A stretch of 64,000 nt of DNA from an uncultured Carboxylicivirga sp. (GTDB lineage: Bacteria; Bacteroidota; Bacteroidia; Bacteroidales; Marinilabiliaceae), in NCBI RefSeq assembly GCF_963668385.1, contig NZ_OY764327.1, positions 744,001 through 808,000 on the forward strand, read 5' to 3'. Below, one piece after another: positions 29,866 to 38,386 of the stretch. Both the position numbers and the translations under genes were made by a program. Each line of letters begins with the position of its first letter. Position 1 is the stretch's first letter. The notes beneath the pieces were generated by a model. That model was not told the origin of the DNA. It saw nothing but the letters and a program-made list of their open reading frames with translations, and made no database searches.

Positions 29866-30261
29866 ATGAGTGAACATTTTAACAAGGTTAAAGACTACCT
29901 CCTTGACCTTGAGTACAGAATTGTGTCGGAAGACGCTGCTGAAGAATTATTTGTCGTTGAAAAAGAAGAAGACGGCATCTCAAATGTAATTGTCGATTGT
30001 GAAGATTCGATCCTTATTATTGAAGGTTTACTTTTCGAATTAGCCAAAGGCTCAGAAGATATCTACAAGTCATTATTGGTGATGAATCGCCAAATTGTGC
30101 ATGGAGCCTTTGTTTTAGACGAAGAAGGTAAAAAAGTGATTTTTCGCGACACCCTTCAACTCGAAAATCTTGATTTAAACGAGCTCGAAGGAAGTTTAAA
30201 CTCACTTAAACTATTATTATCTGAATACTCAGATCAATTAATCGAATTTTCAAAAGCCTAA
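29866..30261 (+). CDS. YbjN/CesT-like small protein, first gene of the PspA cluster
   Basis: The 131-residue acidic soluble protein begins MSEHFNKVKDYLLDLEYRI and alternates strands and helices in the manner of the CesT/YbjN chaperone-like fold (VIVDCEDSILIIEG, then KSLLVMNRQIVHGAFVLDEEGKKVIFRD). It starts the cluster 14 nt before the PspA gene. In other bacteria a CesT-like gene is often placed next to PspA, and in E. coli yjfI fills the comparable slot before the PspA homologue yjfJ. It may help load or hold PspA; that is inference. Confidence 0.65.
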   Translation: MSEHFNKVKDYLLDLEYRIVSEDAAEELFVVEKEEDGISNVIVDCEDSILIIEGLLFELAKGSEDIYKSLLVMNRQIVHGAFVLDEEGKKVIFRDTLQLENLDLNELEGSLNSLKLLLSEYSDQLIEFSKA

Positions 30262-30275
30262 AAACAAATTTAGAA

Positions 30276-30983
30276 ATGGGAATTTTCAACAGAATATTTA
30301 ATGTAGGAAAAGCAGAAGCCCATGCAATTGTCGATAAATTGGAAGATCCAATTAAAATGACAGAGCAAGGGATTCGCGACTTAAAACAGGACTTAGATAA
30401 AAGTTTGCAAGCTTTGGCCGAGGTAAAAGCAATGGCAATAAGAAGCAAAAAAGACTTAAACGATAGCAAATCGTTAGCTCAAAACTATGAGCAAAAAGCA
30501 ATTCTTCTCATTCAGAAAGCTGAAAAAGGAGAATTAGATGTTGCCGAAGCCGATCGCCTAGCTACTGAATCATTATCAAAGAAAGAAGAAGCTTTAGACG
30601 CTGCCAAAAGAGCACAGGAAGAAGTAACTCGATTTGATAATAATATTGCCACTCTTGACAAGAATGTTAAGAAGTTAAAAAGTACTATTTCAAGCTACGA
30701 AAACGAATTACGAACACTTAAAGCTCGTGCCCGAGTTAGCAGTGCTACTCAAAAAATTAACAAACAGTTAAGCGGCATTGATAGCTCAGGAACGGTTTCG
30801 ATGCTTGAAAAAATGAAAGAAAAAGTAGCTCAACAAGAGGCTTTATCTGAAGCTTATGGCGAAATAAGTCTTGAAAACCGAAGCCTTGATGATGAAATAG
30901 ACGATGTTCTTTCTGAGAAAAATGTTAAAGCGTCTAATTCCTTAGAGGAGTTAAAAGCCAAATTAAAGAACAAAACGGAGTAA
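30276..30983 (+). CDS. PspA/IM30 family membrane-stress protein
   Basis: PspA-family proteins form oligomeric ESCRT-III-like coats that stabilise damaged inner membranes. The 235-residue protein is almost entirely coiled coil, starting MGIFNRIFNVGKAEAHAIVDKLEDP with the family's LEDP motif and continuing with heptad-rich helices to about 185. It lacks PspF-, PspB- and PspC-type partners nearby; the neighbours are DUF4178, DUF350, polyamine and K+ channel genes. This matches the E. coli yjfIJKL-type layout rather than the classical psp operon. Confidence 0.93.
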   Translation: MGIFNRIFNVGKAEAHAIVDKLEDPIKMTEQGIRDLKQDLDKSLQALAEVKAMAIRSKKDLNDSKSLAQNYEQKAILLIQKAEKGELDVAEADRLATESLSKKEEALDAAKRAQEEVTRFDNNIATLDKNVKKLKSTISSYENELRTLKARARVSSATQKINKQLSGIDSSGTVSMLEKMKEKVAQQEALSEAYGEISLENRSLDDEIDDVLSEKNVKASNSLEELKAKLKNKTE

Positions 30984-31004
30984 CACCTCCCCTTTTTAAG
31001 CATT

Positions 31005-31550
31005 ATGGGATTATTTGATATTTTCAAAAAGAAGCAAGAATCACATTACGATAGCACTAACATCCGGATTCAGGATCTGGATGTTGGTTTTGTTTTCGAA
31101 TACGATTTATCAACATGGATGGTAGAAGCCATTATGGAATACGATTGGGGAAACAACTTTTTCACTCGCGAATTTCAAATTAATAATGGGGCTGAAACCC
31201 GCTATCTTGGGATAGAAGAAGATGATGAATTGGAAATCTCATTTATGGAGAAAGTAAAAGTAAGAGCTTTACAAGACGATCTTACTGACACCCTAATTGC
31301 TCGTCAACAACCGCCTAAAAAAATTACGTACAAAGGAATTACGTATCATCTCGAAAAAGAGTCTCCTGGATATTTCCACAACATAACTAAAGGTACTGAG
31401 TGGGAAGAATTCCGTTCATGGGATTTTGAAGATACTACTGGCGAACATCTTTTATGCATCGAACAATGGGATGAAAAAGAATTTGAAGCCGCAATTGGCA
31501 AGAGTGTTAAAACGTTCGAAATATCAAACATCTTACCGGGAGAAAATTAA
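31005..31550 (+). CDS. DUF4178 domain protein
   Basis: The 181-residue soluble protein has the DUF4178 pattern: KKITYKGITYHLEKESPGYF in the middle and a final LLCIEQWDEKEFEAAIGKSV segment, with strand-rich content and many Trp and Tyr. It begins MGLFDIFKKKQ, a basic-amphipathic start like that of the PspA gene next door, which may favour membrane binding. DUF4178 genes commonly accompany DUF350 and polyamine genes. Function unknown. Confidence 0.75.
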   Translation: MGLFDIFKKKQESHYDSTNIRIQDLDVGFVFEYDLSTWMVEAIMEYDWGNNFFTREFQINNGAETRYLGIEEDDELEISFMEKVKVRALQDDLTDTLIARQQPPKKITYKGITYHLEKESPGYFHNITKGTEWEEFRSWDFEDTTGEHLLCIEQWDEKEFEAAIGKSVKTFEISNILPGEN

Positions 31551-31568
31551 CCCCAAACTATTTAAATC

Positions 31569-32381
31569 ATGAACAACGGAATTGCAAAAGTTATAATCAT
31601 CGTTATTCTGGGTTTTATTGTGCTGCGATCGTGCAATAATTGCACACGTTCCAGAAGAATTGACTCCTCAGTCAGCACCTGGCAGAAAACACCGGTTGAT
31701 AAACTAATTACAAAATACAATAACGAACAAAATTACTCGATCATATTACTGGATATGGATTACAGGGGTAGTAATTACTATCACATGTACAATGTTATTA
31801 TTGAACACCCCGATACCGTATTATCCACAACTACTGATTGGGAAGAAGTACCTGATGTTTTCTTCGACGCCAATGTTGATAACATGGGAATGGAAATTGT
31901 AACCAAAAAAGATGGTAAACTAAGTAAAAAAGCCAGTCCTGCCGGATACAATCATTACGTTGGTAATCCTAAATACGGCCATTGGCAAGAGCGAAATGGT
32001 GGATCGTTTTGGGAATTCTATGGACGTTATGCCTTTATGTCTTCAATGTTTAATATGATGACATATCCTGCACGTCGTTCCTATTGGAATGACTATTATG
32101 GTGGGGGATACTACGGATCGCGTGCATATTACGGACCAAGTGGACGAACAGTATACGGAACCAATACTTACACTTCATCCGGTACTGGTAAAAGTAGCAC
32201 TTGGGGTAACAAACCTTCTTCATTCAAACAAAGCGTACGAAGTGAAGTTAAACGTTCGGCAACAGCCACTAAATCCCGTAGCTATTCTTCTAGCTCCAGT
32301 TATTCAAATAAAAAAAGCCGTAGTTCAAGCCGTTACAGCAGTTCTTCATCACGCAGCCGCAGTGGAGGGTTTGGTAAATAA
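31569..32381 (+). CDS. Membrane-anchored protein with Ser/Arg/Tyr-rich tail
   Basis: The 270-residue protein starts with a hydrophobic helix (about 5-22) followed by a Cys pair and a basic patch. A folded middle follows (about 40-160, DKLITKYNNEQNYSIILLDMDY), then a low-complexity region rich in Gly/Tyr and finally Ser/Arg repeats ending GGFGK. The tail resembles those of YgiB/YjfM-like (DUF1190) proteins, which occupy the same slot in the E. coli yjf operon, but sequence identity is not obvious to me. Function unknown; it lies between DUF4178 and DUF350. Confidence 0.6.
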   Translation: MNNGIAKVIIIVILGFIVLRSCNNCTRSRRIDSSVSTWQKTPVDKLITKYNNEQNYSIILLDMDYRGSNYYHMYNVIIEHPDTVLSTTTDWEEVPDVFFDANVDNMGMEIVTKKDGKLSKKASPAGYNHYVGNPKYGHWQERNGGSFWEFYGRYAFMSSMFNMMTYPARRSYWNDYYGGGYYGSRAYYGPSGRTVYGTNTYTSSGTGKSSTWGNKPSSFKQSVRSEVKRSATATKSRSYSSSSSYSNKKSRSSSRYSSSSSRSRSGGFGK

Positions 32382-32403
32382 TAATCATTCAACCTATTAA
32401 GAT

Positions 32404-33273
32404 ATGACATTAACAGAAATTTCATCCATCTTATACGATGCCGTAATATACATTGCTGTTGGCTTTGCCATTTTCTTTATCGGAAAAATGGTATATCAAC
32501 TAGTTAACAGAAGTTTTAATGTTAAAGAAGAACTAGTTGAAAAAGACAACCTTGCTTTCTCATTTGCTCATGTTGGCTACTTTATTGGCCTTTTAGCAGC
32601 CATTGGTAGTGCTATTGTTGGACCTTCGCGAGGATTATTACTGGATATTCAAGACATAGCTATCTACGGGGTACTAGCAATTGTTCTACTTAATATTTCA
32701 ATTTGGTTGAATGATAAAATCATTTTACGAAAGTTTTCTGTCAAAAAAGAAATTATTGAAGACCGAAACTCTGGTTCTGGTGTAATTGAAGGAGCTATTT
32801 CGGTGGCTTCCGGATTGATTATTTTTGGTGCCGTTACTGGCGAAAGTGGAACCCTTATACAAGGAGTTACTTCTGCAACTGTATTTTGGTTAGCCGGGCA
32901 AGTTGCACTCTTTATTACCGCTGCAGTTTATCAATTCATTACTCCATACGATGTACATGAGCATATTGAAAAAGACAATGTTGCTGTAGGAGTAGGTTTT
33001 GCGGGTGCCTTAATTGCAATTGCCAATTTAATTCGTCATGCATTGATGGGCGATTTTGAAGGCTGGGCCTATACATTTTCAGAAGCTGGATTCGAATTAG
33101 CCATAGGTATAATTTTACTTCCGGTAATGCGCTTCCTTACTGATAAAATTTTATTACCAGGACAACGATTAACTGACGAAATTGTCAACCAGGAACATCC
33201 TAACGTTGGAGCCGCCATCATCGAAGCTTTTGCATATATAGGAGGATCAATTTTGATTACCTGGTGTTTATAA
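32404..33273 (+). CDS. DUF350 (YjfL-type) membrane protein
   Basis: The 289-residue integral membrane protein has about eight helices in two similar halves: ELVEKDNLAFSFAHVGYFIGL in the first and HIEKDNVAVGVGFAGALIAI in the second. This internal duplication is typical of DUF350, a family often found with PspA, DUF4178 and spermidine synthase. A transport or membrane-organising role has been suggested for the family but is unproven. A strong terminator hairpin begins 17 nt after its stop. Confidence 0.85.
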   Translation: MTLTEISSILYDAVIYIAVGFAIFFIGKMVYQLVNRSFNVKEELVEKDNLAFSFAHVGYFIGLLAAIGSAIVGPSRGLLLDIQDIAIYGVLAIVLLNISIWLNDKIILRKFSVKKEIIEDRNSGSGVIEGAISVASGLIIFGAVTGESGTLIQGVTSATVFWLAGQVALFITAAVYQFITPYDVHEHIEKDNVAVGVGFAGALIAIANLIRHALMGDFEGWAYTFSEAGFELAIGIILLPVMRFLTDKILLPGQRLTDEIVNQEHPNVGAAIIEAFAYIGGSILITWCL

Positions 33274-33290
33274 TACTACAATTCTGATAT

Positions 33291-33334
33291 AAAAACACGG
33301 AGATCAGACACTGTCATGTTCTCCGTGTTTTTGT
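33291..33334 (+). terminator. Intrinsic terminator inside the PspA-polyamine cluster
   Basis: Arms AAAAACACGGAGA at 33291-33303 and 33320-33332 pair perfectly over 13 bp with a 16-nt loop and end in five Ts. Only 17 nt separate it from the spermidine synthase ATG, and no promoter fits in that gap, so downstream genes must be expressed by read-through, antitermination or a promoter upstream of the hairpin. Confidence 0.85.
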
Positions 33335-33349
33335 GTTTATCTTATTTTC

Positions 33350-34903
33350 ATGTTTAAAATTCGAAATAAATACTCTGCCATTTTAATGGCAGCCATCTTT
33401 GCTACAGGTTTTAGCGGAATCATTGCTGAATATCTATTATCAACCTTAGCCACCTATTTTTTGGGTGATTCCATTCTTCAGTGGACAATGATTGTATCCA
33501 CAATGATGTTTTCGATGGGATTAGGAAGCCGCATTAGTAAATCATTTAAAGTTAACCTTACCGAGAAATTCCTAATTCTTGAATTTGCACTTTCATTAGT
33601 AGTGTCTTTTGCTCCAATGATAGTTTATACAACCTCGGCATTCACCAACTCACTGGCAATTGTTATTTACGCATTTTCCATCCTTATTGGTACTTTAATT
33701 GGTATGGAAATTCCACTTGTAATGCGAATCAATAACGAATATGAGTCGCTTCGAGTTAACATCTCTAACGTACTTGAAAAGGATTATTACGGAAGTTTAA
33801 TTGGAGGTATATTCTTTGTCGTAGTAGGTCTTCCCTTCTTAGGTCTAACTTATTTACCTTTCTTTTTAGGTACTGTTAATTTTGGCGTTGCTGTAGTTGT
33901 TTATTTTATGCTCAACATCCTAATCGATAAAAAGTATAAAACATACCTCAATACTTCAATTGCTTTGGTAACAGTTACTATTATTGCCGGAGTAATCTTT
34001 TCTGATCCTATTATCAAATACGGTGAACAGATCAAATACAAAGACAAAGTAGTTTACTCAGAACAAAGCCAATATCAAAAAATCGTAATCACTCAATGGC
34101 AAGATAATTACTGGCTTTATCTTAATAGTAACGAACAGCTATGTACTATGGACGAAATGATGTACCACGAACCATTAGTCCACCCTGTTATGTCACTTCA
34201 TCCTCATCCTCAAAACGTATTAATATTAGGAGGTGGTGACGGTTGTGCAGCCCGTGAAGTATTAAAATATCTGTCTGTTAAAAGTATTCGTTTAATTGAT
34301 CTTGATCCAGCCATGACTAAGCTGGGACAAGAACATCCAATTCTTACCAACCTTAACAAAGGAGCTCTTAACAATCCCAAGGTTGAAATAATTAATTCGG
34401 ATGGATACCATTATCTTACCCAAAATAAAGACTTCTATGATGTAATAATAATTGATTTACCCGATCCACGAACCGTTGAATTAGGCAGATTGTATTCGAT
34501 GGAATTTTACAGTGTTTGCTATAGACATCTTCGCCCTGAAGGTTTAATCATCACACAAGCCGGAAGCCCATATTTTGCCACCAAAGCATTTAAATGCATT
34601 ATTGAAACCATGCGCGAAGCTGGATTCAAAACCATTCCTCTGCATAATCAGGTATTATCTCTAGGAGAATGGGGATGGTCATTAGGAATGAAAACACAAA
34701 GAGAAGTAAATCTAAAAAAAGCAATTCAATCATTACACTTTCATAATATTGAAACCCAATGGCTAAATAATGATGCAATGCAATTGATTACTTCCTTTGG
34801 AAAGGATATTTTTCCAGGTCAAAACGATTCTGTGAAAGTAAATCGAATTCATGATCCGGTCTTGTATAAATACTATTTAAAAGGAAACTGGGATTTATAT
34901 TAA
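33350..34903 (+). CDS. Polyamine aminopropyltransferase (spermidine synthase) with N-terminal membrane domain
   Basis: The 517-residue protein fuses about seven transmembrane helices (1-215) to a soluble spermidine synthase domain (about 225-500). The AdoMet-type site LILGGGDGCAAREVLK is near 292, and the acidic catalytic strand is VIIIDLPDPRTVELGRLYS. The enzyme transfers aminopropyl groups from decarboxylated AdoMet to a diamine. The next gene makes that donor. Membrane fusion of spermidine synthase is known but unusual, and suggests coupling of synthesis to the membrane or to export. Confidence 0.9.
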   Translation: MFKIRNKYSAILMAAIFATGFSGIIAEYLLSTLATYFLGDSILQWTMIVSTMMFSMGLGSRISKSFKVNLTEKFLILEFALSLVVSFAPMIVYTTSAFTNSLAIVIYAFSILIGTLIGMEIPLVMRINNEYESLRVNISNVLEKDYYGSLIGGIFFVVVGLPFLGLTYLPFFLGTVNFGVAVVVYFMLNILIDKKYKTYLNTSIALVTVTIIAGVIFSDPIIKYGEQIKYKDKVVYSEQSQYQKIVITQWQDNYWLYLNSNEQLCTMDEMMYHEPLVHPVMSLHPHPQNVLILGGGDGCAAREVLKYLSVKSIRLIDLDPAMTKLGQEHPILTNLNKGALNNPKVEIINSDGYHYLTQNKDFYDVIIIDLPDPRTVELGRLYSMEFYSVCYRHLRPEGLIITQAGSPYFATKAFKCIIETMREAGFKTIPLHNQVLSLGEWGWSLGMKTQREVNLKKAIQSLHFHNIETQWLNNDAMQLITSFGKDIFPGQNDSVKVNRIHDPVLYKYYLKGNWDLY

Positions 34904-34914
34904 ATAACTCAACA

Positions 34915-35280
34915 ATGACTAAAATAAATGCAGTTAATCTGCCTCCCAAAATATTCAACATAAAAGGATGGATCGAGCTTTATGAGCCCATAAAGCTTAA
35001 AGAGCAATTTGATACCGCTTTAAATAAAAGTGGTTTTAAGGTTTTACAATTTACCGATCATAAATTTCCAGAAAACGGATACACCGCTTTTTGGTTACTG
35101 GCCGAATCACACTTCGCAGTTCACACATTTGATCAGGATGGTTGCTCATATATCGAGCTTAGTAGTTGCAATAAGGAAAAAGCCCTTAATTTTATAACTT
35201 TATGCAAACAATTCAATTTTACTTTTCAATGGGAAAATGATTTAGAGGAATTGAATTGCAATAAAAATGCGAACGCATAA
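34915..35280 (+). CDS. S-adenosylmethionine decarboxylase (SpeH-like small form)
   Basis: AdoMet decarboxylase supplies the aminopropyl donor for spermidine. The 121-residue protein carries the self-cleavage motif LAESHFAVHTF with Ser65 as the predicted pyruvoyl precursor after Glu64, followed by His66, His70 and a later Cys85 as possible proton donor. It lies 11 nt after the spermidine synthase gene, its metabolic partner, and 12 nt before the potassium channel gene. The usual HTWPE is HTFDQ here, a modest divergence. Confidence 0.85.
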   Translation: MTKINAVNLPPKIFNIKGWIELYEPIKLKEQFDTALNKSGFKVLQFTDHKFPENGYTAFWLLAESHFAVHTFDQDGCSYIELSSCNKEKALNFITLCKQFNFTFQWENDLEELNCNKNANA

Positions 35281-35292
35281 ACCACACGAAAC

Positions 35293-36318
35293 ATGAAGAA
35301 AAAAGCAGGACTTGCCATTGGTTTAATAGTATATCTGTTTTTAATCTATCTGATATCAATAGTTGAGAGCAGTGACCCTAACTCCAATATCAAATCGCTG
35401 ACTGATGCTTTATGGTATGCTATTGTTACCTTAACAACGGTTGGCTATGGTGACTTCTACCCAGTTACCGCACTTGGTAAAATAATTGGACTTTTTGTAA
35501 TTTTAGGTAGTCTGGGGGTTATTGGCTACTTTATTGGTGAAATCAGCAGTAGAATAAGTACTTATATGGAAAAGAAGAAAAACGGTTTTTTCGGAACAGA
35601 TTTCGAAAACCATTATATGATAATAGGTTGGAGTGGATTTGGCAAAAAAGTAGCTGATCAAATTTTCCCAACAGGACATAACATTGCATTTATAACAAAC
35701 TCCAAAGGTGATTTAGAACTTATTAAAGATTTATATCAACATAATCAGTGTTTTGCCATGTTTGCCGATTACAACAATATGGATGCCTATCGTAAAGCAA
35801 ACATCGAAAAAACAAAGGCTGTCTTTATCAACTTTGTAGACGATACCGAAACTTTAGTTTTTGTATTAAATCTCAAACGAGAATTTCCAGATATTAATAT
35901 CATTGTTAACTGTAGTAATCCTGATTTAAAAGAAACCCTAATTAACACAGGTATCAAACATGTTGTCTCTCGAAGTGAAGTTGCATCAAGATTAGTAGCA
36001 AGCTATTTATTTGAACCCCATGTTGCAGAATATACCGAGGATTTGATATCTACAAGTGTTGAAATGGACGACCAAGATATTCAACAATACAAGGTTACGC
36101 GGCAAAATCCATATATTGAGTCTACTTATTTTGATGCTTTTGTCAAAATGAAGAAAGATCTCAATGTTATTTTAATTGGATTAGTAATTAACAATAAGAT
36201 TGAAAAGAATCCTTCTGATGAACAACTTATTAAAGAAAGTCAATATTTGATTATTATTTCGGTAGGAAAAGAAAAGCTTGAACTCGAACAAGTATTTGGA
36301 GTAAAAGAAGGATTATAA
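35293..36318 (+). CDS. Two-TM potassium channel with RCK (TrkA-N) domain
   Basis: The 341-residue protein has TM1 (about 5-22), a pore loop with the selectivity filter TVGYGD (49-54), TM2 (about 65-87) and a regulatory RCK domain from about 105 (YMIIGWSGFGKKVADQI Rossmann motif) plus a TrkA-C-like tail. This is the MthK/Kch-like design of K+ channels gated by cytoplasmic ligands. Polyamines block many K+ channels, so its place beside the spermidine genes is notable; a functional link is inference. It ends the cluster. Confidence 0.92.
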   Translation: MKKKAGLAIGLIVYLFLIYLISIVESSDPNSNIKSLTDALWYAIVTLTTVGYGDFYPVTALGKIIGLFVILGSLGVIGYFIGEISSRISTYMEKKKNGFFGTDFENHYMIIGWSGFGKKVADQIFPTGHNIAFITNSKGDLELIKDLYQHNQCFAMFADYNNMDAYRKANIEKTKAVFINFVDDTETLVFVLNLKREFPDINIIVNCSNPDLKETLINTGIKHVVSRSEVASRLVASYLFEPHVAEYTEDLISTSVEMDDQDIQQYKVTRQNPYIESTYFDAFVKMKKDLNVILIGLVINNKIEKNPSDEQLIKESQYLIIISVGKEKLELEQVFGVKEGL

Positions 36319-37162: not shown

Positions 37163-38386
37163 ATGAGCAAAGATCGAAAACCACATATTGGAATTTTTGG
37201 ACGTCGTAACAATGGCAAAAGTTCAATTATAAATAAATTATCAGGACAAGACACAGCTATTGTATCAGAGATAGCAGGAACAACTACTGATCCTGTTAAA
37301 AAATCATTTGAGATCACTGGTTTTGGTCCGGTAATTTTAATTGATACGGCTGGCATTGATGACTTCGGGGAATTGGGAGAACAAAGAGTTAAGAAATCAA
37401 CACAAATCATCAACCAAGTTGATTTAGCCATCTTAGTTGTAACCAATAATCAATGGGATCAATCAGAAGCATCACTCATTAAGGCTTTTAACAAACAAGA
37501 TACTCCATTCATCATCATCCATAACAAAACTGATCTTACACCACCATCAATAGATTGGTTAAACACTACTTCACAAATCAATGCATCGGCTATTATTCCA
37601 TTTTCTGTTATCTCATCAGATATCGATCTATTAATTAAGGAGATTAGAAAAGCTATTCCTGAATCGGCTTACACAACTCCCTCTTTAGTTGGGGATTTAA
37701 TTTCGTATGGTGATATTGTTTTGCTTATTACCCCCATTGATATTGAAGCTCCGGAAGGAAGACTCATTTTACCCCAAATTCAAGCTATCAGAGATATTTT
37801 AGATAATGATGCCATATGCATTGTATTGAAAGAAAAAGAAGTTGACTCATTTTTAAAACGTACTGGCATTAGACCCGCATTGGCCATTACAGATAGTCAA
37901 ATATTTTTAAAAGCCGATGCTTCTGTTCCCAAAAATATACCATTAACAGGATTCAGTATATTATTAGCTCATTTCAAAGGAGATTTCGAAAGTTATTTGC
38001 AAGGCACACCTAAAATTGATGAGTTAAAAGATGGTGATCGAATCTTATTATTAGAGTCGTGTTCTCATCATGTATCATGCGATGACATAGGAAGAGTTAA
38101 AATACCAAGGTGGCTAACAGCATATACTGGTAAAAACCTGAATTTTGATGTAGTTTCTGGTCTCAACCAAATAGAGAAACCGATTGAACAATACGCCTTA
38201 GTAATTCAATGTGGAGGCTGCATGATTACTAGAAAACAATTGAACAATAGACTCAACCTTGCTAAAACAACAAAAATACCCATAACTAATTATGGCATGA
38301 CTATTGCCTATGTTCAAGGGATATATCAACGAGCTATCGCTCCCTTTGTAGATAATAGCCAAATGGTTAAACCAGACTATTTATAA
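37163..38386 (+). CDS. hydF: [FeFe]-hydrogenase H-cluster maturation GTPase HydF
   Basis: HydF is the scaffold on which the 2Fe subcluster of [FeFe]-hydrogenase is built by HydE and HydG, then transferred to HydA. The 407-residue protein has a Ras-like GTPase domain (G1 GRRNNGKSS, G3 DTAG, G4 NKTD), a dimerisation domain, and the C-terminal Fe-S site with CSHHVSCDD followed at spacing by CGGCM. HydE, HydG and HydA are not in this window. An aspartate ammonia-lyase, a gene often near hydEFG in anaerobes, is 5 kb downstream on the other strand. Confidence 0.95.
   Translation: MSKDRKPHIGIFGRRNNGKSSIINKLSGQDTAIVSEIAGTTTDPVKKSFEITGFGPVILIDTAGIDDFGELGEQRVKKSTQIINQVDLAILVVTNNQWDQSEASLIKAFNKQDTPFIIIHNKTDLTPPSIDWLNTTSQINASAIIPFSVISSDIDLLIKEIRKAIPESAYTTPSLVGDLISYGDIVLLITPIDIEAPEGRLILPQIQAIRDILDNDAICIVLKEKEVDSFLKRTGIRPALAITDSQIFLKADASVPKNIPLTGFSILLAHFKGDFESYLQGTPKIDELKDGDRILLLESCSHHVSCDDIGRVKIPRWLTAYTGKNLNFDVVSGLNQIEKPIEQYALVIQCGGCMITRKQLNNRLNLAKTTKIPITNYGMTIAYVQGIYQRAIAPFVDNSQMVKPDYL

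What the first reader, a model, noticed from the sequence alone, without database searches (positions are those of the whole stretch)
29866..36318. PspA-polyamine-potassium channel locus with eight co-directional genes
Genes for a YbjN/CesT-like protein, PspA, DUF4178, a Ser/Arg-rich membrane-anchored protein, DUF350, membrane-fused spermidine synthase, AdoMet decarboxylase and an RCK K+ channel lie head to tail with gaps of 11-76 nt. The first five parallel the E. coli yjfIJKLM order; the last three add polyamine synthesis and a channel type often blocked by polyamines. The arrangement suggests a membrane-damage response that adjusts polyamine and K+ levels. Parts of this association have been noted in comparative studies of PspA, but the combined function is not established. 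All three linked activities are predicted from families; the joint role is inference.
Basis: partly seen in the sequence, partly recalled or inferred. Interest (0 to 1): 0.75.

Follow-up and report, generated by a model that had tools for sequence, protein, structure and literature searches.

The report
Enzyme operon with lysine-tipped lipoprotein partner
This bacterial membrane-stress gene cluster carries a spermidine-making-type enzyme that probably does not make spermidine but may add a spermidine-like tip to the last amino acid, nearly always a lysine, of a partner protein in the same cluster; that would answer an open question about what this enzyme family acts on.

Summary
The eight genes are real, head to tail, gaps 11-76 nt, and in the same order in 9 of 9 Marinilabiliaceae relatives. 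The operon class is in print (Ravi 2024, PMC11237479, passages). New here: the Ser/Arg-rich ORF4 ends in Gly-Lys in 42 of 43 homologues; a distant clade of the fused enzyme has instead a small membrane peptide ending in Lys (17 of 21 loci with DUF350). Beside YjfC-type peptide-spermidine ligases the partner ends in Gly (15 of 15, 14 GG; five chosen by position and tail), including three loci with both enzymes. The fused enzyme keeps its dcAdoMet-side residues but has lost the acceptor-side Glu in 77 of 77. The host has a carboxyspermidine-type route; its only AdoMet decarboxylase lies here. Best reading: aminopropylation of a protein's C-terminal lysine, making a spermidine-like cap. Confidence 0.55; no biochemistry. 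Against: 7 of 18 order genomes with the enzyme lack a detectable AdoMet decarboxylase; 8 of 36 distant or plasmid loci show no partner. The K+ channel is accessory.

The parts
29866..30261 (+). CesT_Tir_1 / YbjN-like protein, 131 aa; probable chaperone-like partner of PspA
   Evidence: found in 13 of 33 non-Marinilabiliaceae near-clade copies
30276..30983 (+). PspA/IM30 family protein, 235 aa
   Evidence: 148 bits; a second PspA lies at G000:C1:4266792
31005..31550 (+). DUF4178 protein, 181 aa
   Evidence: DUF4178 also matched in 4 proteins of distant operons; found in 22 of 33 near-clade copies
31569..32381 (+). ORF4: membrane-anchored (lipoprotein-like in many homologues) protein, 270 aa, globular part plus Ser/Arg/Lys-rich tail; proposed acceptor protein
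   Evidence: no Pfam or NCBIfam match; profile A2 found in 31 of 36 tested genomes with the fused synthase and 2 of 42 without
32364..32378 (+). ORF4 C-terminus, the last five residues, ending in Gly-Lys; proposed site of aminopropylation is the last Lys (32376-32378)
   Evidence: Gly-Lys in 42 of 43 homologues; no other Lys of the last 40 residues is conserved
32404..33273 (+). DUF350 membrane protein, two DUF350 stretches, 289 aa
33350..34903 (+). Fused 7-TM + spermidine-synthase-like enzyme, 517 aa; proposed protein aminopropyltransferase
34562..34564 (+). Gly405: place of the acceptor-side Glu of canonical spermidine synthases (Q-x-E-S-P); Gly, Thr or Val in all 77 fused enzymes aligned
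34661..34663 (+). Leu438: place of the acceptor-side Tyr of canonical enzymes; Leu, Met or Phe in all 77 fused enzymes aligned
34915..35280 (+). AdoMet decarboxylase, divergent short form, 121 aa; pyruvoyl-forming Ser65 in the E-S-H motif and Cys85 kept
   Evidence: sole copy found in the genome
35293..36318 (+). K+ channel pore (TVGYGD) with TrkA_N/RCK domain, 341 aa; accessory
   Evidence: found in 9 of 33 near-clade copies

Best explanation
A PspA/CesT/DUF350 envelope module whose dedicated enzymes build a spermidine-like cap on a protein. Step 1: AdoMet decarboxylase makes decarboxylated AdoMet (inferred from family and kept active-site residues). Step 2: the membrane-fused synthase transfers the aminopropyl group not to putrescine but to the side-chain amine of the C-terminal lysine of ORF4 (in the distant clade, of a small membrane peptide), giving -Gly-NH-CH(COOH)-(CH2)4-NH-(CH2)3-NH2. 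This resembles the end that YjfC/YgiC-type peptide-spermidine ligases would make if they join spermidine to the C-terminal Gly of their neighbour (also an inference). The two enzyme types thus lie in related gene groups and would make the same kind of end by different chemistry; in the three loci that have both enzymes the partner ends in GG, and the synthase could there extend a ligated amine. Step 3 (speculative): the cationic tip on a disordered tail acts at the membrane with PspA, DUF350 and, where present, the K+ channel. Shown: gene content, residue patterns, co-occurrence. Inferred: reaction, site, function.
For: C-terminal Gly-Lys in 42 of 43 ORF4 homologues; 33 of them form 18 clusters at 60% identity. 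Background in the same loci without ORF4: 122 of 741 ORFs of 150+ aa end in K, 7 of 741 in GK. In five genomes ORF4 lies on another contig than the synthase and still ends in GK. The one exception, ending RRR, is L196, with no DUF350 after it, from a genome in which no synthase was detected (genome 61% complete). Distant clade: 20 of 29 loci have a Lys-ended partner; 17 are small ORFs with a hydrophobic stretch upstream of DUF350, 3 were noticed by their end (L078, L087, L125). Plasmid loci outside the phylum: 5 of 7. Ligase loci: 12 of 12 partners end in Gly, 11 in GG (7 annotated DUF1190, 5 chosen by position and tail; none found in 2 further loci). A ligase was found in 3 of 76 fused-synthase loci, the three whose partner ends in GG; on the quick tree they group with the Lys-ended Ensifer locus. 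dcAdoMet-side residues kept; acceptor-side Glu and Tyr lost in 77 of 77. ORF4 in 31 of 36 tested synthase-positive genomes against 2 of 42 negatives, Fisher p 3e-14; 4 of the 5 misses carry the small peptide or a GGGGK-ended protein.
Against: No biochemistry or mass data. C-terminal Lys is common in these genomes (16%), and PspA (8 of 23), DUF4178 (13 of 28) and CesT (6 of 22) of these loci also often end in K. 6 of 29 distant Bacteroidota loci (4 of them one family) and 2 of 7 plasmid loci have no partner found. In 9 of the 17 small-peptide loci the listing also holds another short, mostly overlapping ORF that does not end in K. 7 of 18 order genomes with the fused synthase have no detectable AdoMet decarboxylase, five of them at least 90% complete, so either it is too divergent or AdoMet itself is the donor. 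In three genomes the decarboxylase lies beside a non-fused synthase, not with the fused one. Loop charges put the catalytic domain outside the cytoplasm, where dcAdoMet is not known to occur. Relatedness was not removed from the counts beyond the identity clusters. The genomes were picked by me: 36 of 61 positives known then (the 25 left out are of the distant clade) and 42 of the order's negatives.
Confidence: 0.55

Rival explanations
1. The operon makes a free polyamine (spermidine or a relative) that stabilises membranes or blocks the K+ channel.
For: Families are those of spermidine synthesis; the dcAdoMet-side residues are kept; the sole AdoMet decarboxylase is here.
Against: Acceptor-side Glu and Tyr lost in 77 of 77; a carboxyspermidine-type route is encoded elsewhere; three genomes carry a decarboxylase beside a non-fused synthase besides the fused one; does not explain the Lys/Gly end switch. 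The 2019 paper of Li et al. (recalled, not held) reported no complementation of a spermidine synthase mutant.
Confidence: 0.13
2. The synthase aminopropylates a lipid head group (such as the amine of phosphatidylethanolamine), an MprF-like membrane domain plus transferase that makes the membrane more cationic; the Lys end of ORF4 is a separate feature.
For: Seven predicted TM segments fused to the transferase; association with PspA, which acts on membranes (recalled); acceptor site changed.
Against: Gives no reason for the partner's terminal Lys, for its switch to GG with a ligase, or for co-occurrence of ORF4 and the synthase.
Confidence: 0.12
3. The C-terminal Lys is an unmodified sorting or interaction signal read by another operon protein (DUF350 or DUF4178), and the enzyme acts on something unknown.
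For: DUF4178 and DUF350 are also frequent partners (22 and 19 of 33); ORF4 ends in GK in one fragment where the synthase is not seen (L184, genome 70% complete).
Against: The terminal residue follows the enzyme type (Lys without ligase, Gly with it) while DUF350 is annotated in ligase loci too.
Confidence: 0.15
4. The enzyme uses AdoMet itself and transfers a 3-amino-3-carboxypropyl group to the terminal Lys.
For: 7 of 18 order genomes with the fused synthase lack a detectable AdoMet decarboxylase.
Against: In the window and its nine close relatives a decarboxylase with kept active-site residues is adjacent, and the dcAdoMet-side residues are unchanged.
Confidence: 0.05

Closest known systems
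Second CesT/Tir-PspA operon group of Ravi et al. 2024 (PMC11237479; passages; e.g. AAN56744.1, AAN56746.1, AAN56747.1)
   Same: CesT/Tir, PspA, DUF4178, novel lipoprotein (Ctha_1186 domain; that this equals ORF4 is my inference), 8-TM DUF350, 7-TM-fused spermidine-synthase-like protein; this window is a member with AdoMetDC and a K+ channel added
   Different: The passages I read do not mention a C-terminal Lys (the word lysine does not occur in the main text), an acceptor protein, or a link between partner terminus and enzyme type
E. coli yjfIJKLMC and ygiBC (compare third group of Ravi; ligases YjfC/YgiC)
   Same: CesT-like, PspA, DUF350, a membrane-anchored protein with an S/R/G-rich tail, and an enzyme with peptide-polyamine activity
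   Different: ATP-grasp ligase instead of decarboxylase plus synthase; partner is DUF1190 and ends in GG instead of GK; DUF2491 in place of DUF4178
AdoMetDC linked to a membrane-fused spermidine-synthase homologue (Li et al. 2019, Biochem J 476:2579; title and citations seen, content recalled)
   Same: Same enzyme pair and DUF350; the proposal that it aminopropylates something other than putrescine
   Different: The acceptor was unknown there (recalled); here a specific acceptor residue is proposed
Deoxyhypusine on eIF5A; silaffin lysine polyamines (recalled)
   Same: Polyamine-type extension of a protein lysine
   Different: Internal lysines, other enzymes and donors; here a C-terminal lysine and dcAdoMet

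Membership tests
Ravi group-2 CesT-PspA operon | CesT/Tir-PspA pair with DUF4178, lipoprotein, DUF350 and TM-fused spermidine synthase in one run | tested here: met
   the window's ORF4 has an atypical lipobox (LRSC)
Spermidine synthase (SpeE) | dcAdoMet-side and catalytic residues (Tyr272, Asp351, Asp369, Asp372, Gln403, Asp297) | tested here: met
   77 of 77 fused enzymes for the first five, Asp297 in 74 of 77, Glu in 3; roles of these residues are recalled
Spermidine synthase (SpeE) | putrescine-side Glu (Q-x-E-S-P) and Tyr | tested here: not met
   Glu in 15 of 16 canonical, 0 of 77 fused; Tyr in 14 of 16 canonical (Phe in 2), 0 of 77 fused; roles recalled; the 16 canonical rows were picked by me
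Spermidine synthase (SpeE) | makes spermidine from putrescine | not testable with these tools
   needs an assay
AdoMet decarboxylase class 1 | pyruvoyl-forming Ser, His and Cys | tested here: met
   E-S-H...H in the window protein and its nine close relatives; Cys at Ser+20 aligned with that of 1tlu
yjfIJKLMC-type operon | ATP-grasp peptide-spermidine ligase and DUF1190 protein | tested here: not met
   no DUF1190 or GSP_synth among the eight genes; ligase profile negative in the nine close-relative loci
K+ channel with RCK domain | TVGYGD filter and TrkA_N domain | tested here: met
Classic Psp system (PspABC/PspF) | PspB, PspC, PspF beside PspA | tested here: inconclusive
   no such match among the eight genes and four flanking genes scanned; other flanking genes and the rest of the genome were not searched for them

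The most novel reading that the evidence does not exclude
A two-way code for putting a polyamine tip on membrane proteins: partners of the ATP-grasp ligase end in Gly-Gly and receive preformed spermidine on the C-terminal carboxylate; partners of the membrane-fused synthase end in Lys and receive an aminopropyl group on its side-chain amine, making nearly the same cationic end. The tip would be a tethered polyamine, a possible ball-and-chain for the K+ channel or anchor for PspA, made outside the cytoplasm if the predicted topology is right. N6-aminopropyl-lysine at a protein C-terminus would be a new protein modification.
Probability: 0.45. Interest if true: 0.92.

Novelty: new variant of a known kind. 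Interest (0 to 1): 0.8.

Why it matters
Membrane-fused spermidine-synthase homologues are spread over several phyla, and what they aminopropylate has been an open question (recalled from Li 2019; Ravi 2024 speaks of 'aminopropylation of other substrates'). A named acceptor residue on a named neighbour turns that into one mass-spectrometry experiment. If right, it defines a new protein modification, gives a shared purpose to two enzyme types seen in PspA-linked operons, and warns against annotating these genes as spermidine synthesis.

Tried and rejected
Spermidine supply: rejected as main role. Second spermidine-synthase hit in the genome is an RsmD-like rRNA methyltransferase (114.6 bits, just under that model's cut-off of 117.5). 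Structure of the fused enzyme: model poor (pLDDT 52), used only for its seven long helices, not searched. ORF4 globular part: pLDDT 62, no PDB match at E <= 0.001. Topology of the small peptides by flanking charge: 13 of 21 have more K/R before the hydrophobic stretch, so inconclusive. Promoter and terminator scans: 32 and 4 sites against 27.3 and 4.5 in shuffles. Arg374 as a carboxylate binder for the terminal Lys: R or K in 27 of 35, not universal, left as a lead. The careful tree did not finish; the quick tree was used. Literature: of ten searches only 95 and 114 asked for an aminopropylated protein or C-terminal lysine; one listed two papers by other terms, 114 none. The library holds only CC-licensed papers, so this is not proof of absence.
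Full report
What is there. The window lies in a 6.27 Mb single-contig genome whose closest named relatives found are Carboxylicivirga linearis and other Marinilabiliaceae (nine loci, 71-86% identity of the synthase). Eight ORFs run head to tail from 29866 to 36318: CesT_Tir_1, PspA, DUF4178, an unassigned Ser/Arg-rich protein (ORF4), a double DUF350, a membrane-fused spermidine-synthase-like protein, an AdoMet decarboxylase and a K+ channel with TrkA_N domain. Gaps are 11-76 nt. All nine relatives keep all eight genes in this order and strand.

How far it reaches. NCBIfam PRK03612 (the fused form) scores over its cut-off in 8 of 118 phylum genomes, 19 of 247 order genomes and 39 of 395 class genomes (the sets overlap). 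Among 33 near-clade copies outside the nine Marinilabiliaceae loci (6 lie near contig ends), profiles built from Marinilabiliaceae found within 6 kb DUF4178 in 22, ORF4 in 24, DUF350 in 19, PspA in 14, CesT in 13, AdoMet decarboxylase in 13 and the K+ channel in 9; these are lower bounds. The commonest partners are ORF4, DUF4178 and DUF350; PspA-CesT, decarboxylase and channel come and go.

It is probably not spermidine supply. The operon's decarboxylase is the only one found in the genome, and the only other Spermine_synth hit is RsmD-like. The genome separately encodes a full-score NspC-type carboxynorspermidine decarboxylase (506 bits, cut-off 409) with a carboxynorspermidine-synthase-like gene 2.5 kb away (422 bits, below that model's cut-off of 800). 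Of the 8 genomes over the cut-off, five have a single decarboxylase within about 3 kb of the fused synthase; in the other three the decarboxylase lies beside a non-fused synthase elsewhere. Among the fused enzymes the residues that I recall as dcAdoMet-binding or catalytic are kept (Tyr272, Asp351, Asp369, Asp372, Gln403 in 77 of 77; Asp297 in 74), while the Glu of canonical Q-x-E-S-P (15 of 16) is Gly, Thr or Val in 77 of 77 and the canonical Tyr (14 of 16) is Leu, Met or Phe in 77 of 77 (first seen on 35). The 77 leave out two high-GC plasmid loci (L155, L159). The 16 canonical rows were picked by me; one (L107) is an odd ORF and accounts for several exceptions; two canonical rows also have Phe at the Tyr place.

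The terminal lysine. ORF4 homologues share an N-terminal anchor (a plain lipobox in many; LRSC in the window), a globular part and a fast-changing Ser/Arg/Lys-rich tail. Counted from the stop codon, the last residue is Lys and the one before Gly in 34 of 34 (window and 33 homologues from the fetched synthase loci); within the last 40 residues no other lysine is conserved, the best place being 11 of 34. Nine further homologues came from a whole-genome profile search: eight end in GK, five of them from genomes where the synthase lies on another contig and one (L184) from a genome 70% complete in which no synthase was detected; the ninth (L196) ends in RRR, has no DUF350 after it, and is from a genome 61% complete with no synthase detected. 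Total 42 of 43. Background in the same Bacteroidota loci without ORF4: 122 of 741 ORFs of 150 or more aa end in K, 7 of 741 in GK. The 33 homologues form 18 clusters at 60% identity. ORF4 was found in 31 of 36 synthase-positive genomes tested and in 2 of 42 negatives (Fisher p 3e-14). I chose these genomes: 36 of the 61 positives known then (the 25 left out belong to the distant clade, in whose loci one search had found no ORF4) and 42 of the order's negatives, so the p-value speaks for the near clade only.

A second partner with the same end. Four of the five positives without ORF4 (G153, G172, G201, G207) belong to a distant clade of the synthase; the fifth, G653, is 77% complete. In 29 Bacteroidota loci of that clade, 20 have a Lys-ended partner. 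Seventeen are small ORFs (50-94 aa as called, with a hydrophobic stretch, 7-260 nt upstream of DUF350), seen in a listing that did not select on the last residue (17 of 21 loci with a DUF350 hit; nine of these listings also hold another short, mostly overlapping ORF not ending in K). Three were noticed by their end: L087, a DUF4178 protein ending GGGGK; L078, a 464-aa protein ending SHK; L125, a short, apparently frame-damaged ORF ending NHK. Three loci have GG-ended partners (below) and six none (L126, L127, L136, L144, L151, L153; four are one family). Outside the phylum, 5 of 7 plasmid loci show a Lys-ended partner (Ensifer, Tritonibacter, two Novosphingobium, Alteromonas); Burkholderia stagnalis and Gemmatirosa showed none.

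The switch with the ligase. E. coli YjfC and YgiC are annotated as peptide-spermidine ligases (Pederick 2023, seen only as a cited title and in one passage of PMC12568646). Their neighbours YjfM and YgiB end in GG. Of 12 plasmid ligase loci fetched (of 40 listed and 147 found), 10 have a partner and all end in Gly, nine in GG (Asticcacaulis ends CG); in 2 none was seen on the strand and stretch listed. Five of the ten are annotated DUF1190; the other five I chose by position and tail, so they are weaker evidence. A ligase profile run over 76 loci with the fused synthase found three ligases, confirmed as GSP_synth by Pfam: L080, L147 and L150, which also have a decarboxylase with the E-S-H motif. 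Beside the ligase, divergent from the synthase, lies a protein with a hydrophobic stretch that ends in GG, not Lys. On the quick tree these three group with the Lys-ended Ensifer locus, in which no ligase was found. The partner's last residue thus follows the enzyme able to use it.

Mechanism. The simplest reading is that the fused synthase transfers aminopropyl to the amine of the terminal lysine. Lysine's side chain is an aminobutyl group, like putrescine with the far amine replaced by the peptide carbon and carboxylate, which fits loss of the acceptor-side Glu. The product resembles a Gly-spermidine end. In the hybrid loci the synthase might extend a ligated diamine. These chemical steps are inference.

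Side of the membrane. K/R residues averaged over 35 fused enzymes mark four cytoplasmic stretches and leave seven TM segments, which puts the catalytic domain outside; a low-confidence AlphaFold model also begins with seven long helices. Several distant loci contain a ~545-aa protein with a twin-Arg-like start; the two tested match flavin amine oxidase, which would fit an outside substrate. The charge flanks of the small peptides are inconclusive, 13 of 21. A periplasmic supply of dcAdoMet is not known to me, so this remains open.

What weakens it. 7 of 18 order genomes with the fused synthase have no detectable AdoMet decarboxylase, five of them at least 90% complete. Lys ends are common in these genomes and also in PspA, DUF4178 and CesT of these loci. 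There is no assay.

What is known. Ravi et al. 2024 (PMC11237479, passages) describe this operon class, including a novel lipoprotein and the idea of aminopropylation of other substrates; the ligase class with a K+ channel is their third group. Li et al. 2019 is not held. yjfIJKL up-regulation in heat-evolved E. coli (PMC12492005, passages) and the P. aeruginosa bac operon (PMC10948618, passages) support an envelope role for related operons. Of ten literature searches, the two that asked for it found no report of an aminopropylated protein lysine in the library.

Noticed in passing
G000:C1:4266385-4270453 (L084:6385-10453): A second CesT-PspA pair followed by a protein with a sub-threshold YqiJ_N match and a 711-aa protein without Pfam or NCBIfam match; that this is the flotillin-type operon of Ravi et al. 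is a guess.
   Followed up: partly
L077:9296-10951, L122:9483-11120 (tested); L119:9748-11391 and others (not tested): Next to the distant-clade synthase lies a ~545-aa protein, flavin amine oxidase-like in the two tested, that often starts with a twin-Arg-like motif: a possible exported second enzyme acting on the modified tail.
   Followed up: partly
AdoMet decarboxylases of L077, L119, L122, L130, L132, L134, L135, L137, L140, L142, L148: The conserved Cys about 20 residues after the pyruvoyl Ser is Ser in these decarboxylases (FLSN), unlike the window's (SSC).
   Followed up: no
L121 and L139: Two fused synthases in opposite orientation a few kb apart in one genome, only one of them beside ORF4 on its strand.
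   Followed up: no
L126, L127, L136, L144, L151, L153: Fused synthases without any Lys- or Gly-ended partner recognised nearby; L127, L136, L151 and L153 are one family and share a ~715-747-aa upstream protein.
   Followed up: partly
L120:10079-11410, L138:816-2147, L143:10297-11586: DUF4178-like and ORF4 parts in one frame, still ending in GK, which suggests the two act together.
   Followed up: no
window 37163-38386: HydF-type [FeFe] hydrogenase maturation GTPase (495.6 bits, cut-off 325.55), the second ORF downstream of the operon.
   Followed up: no
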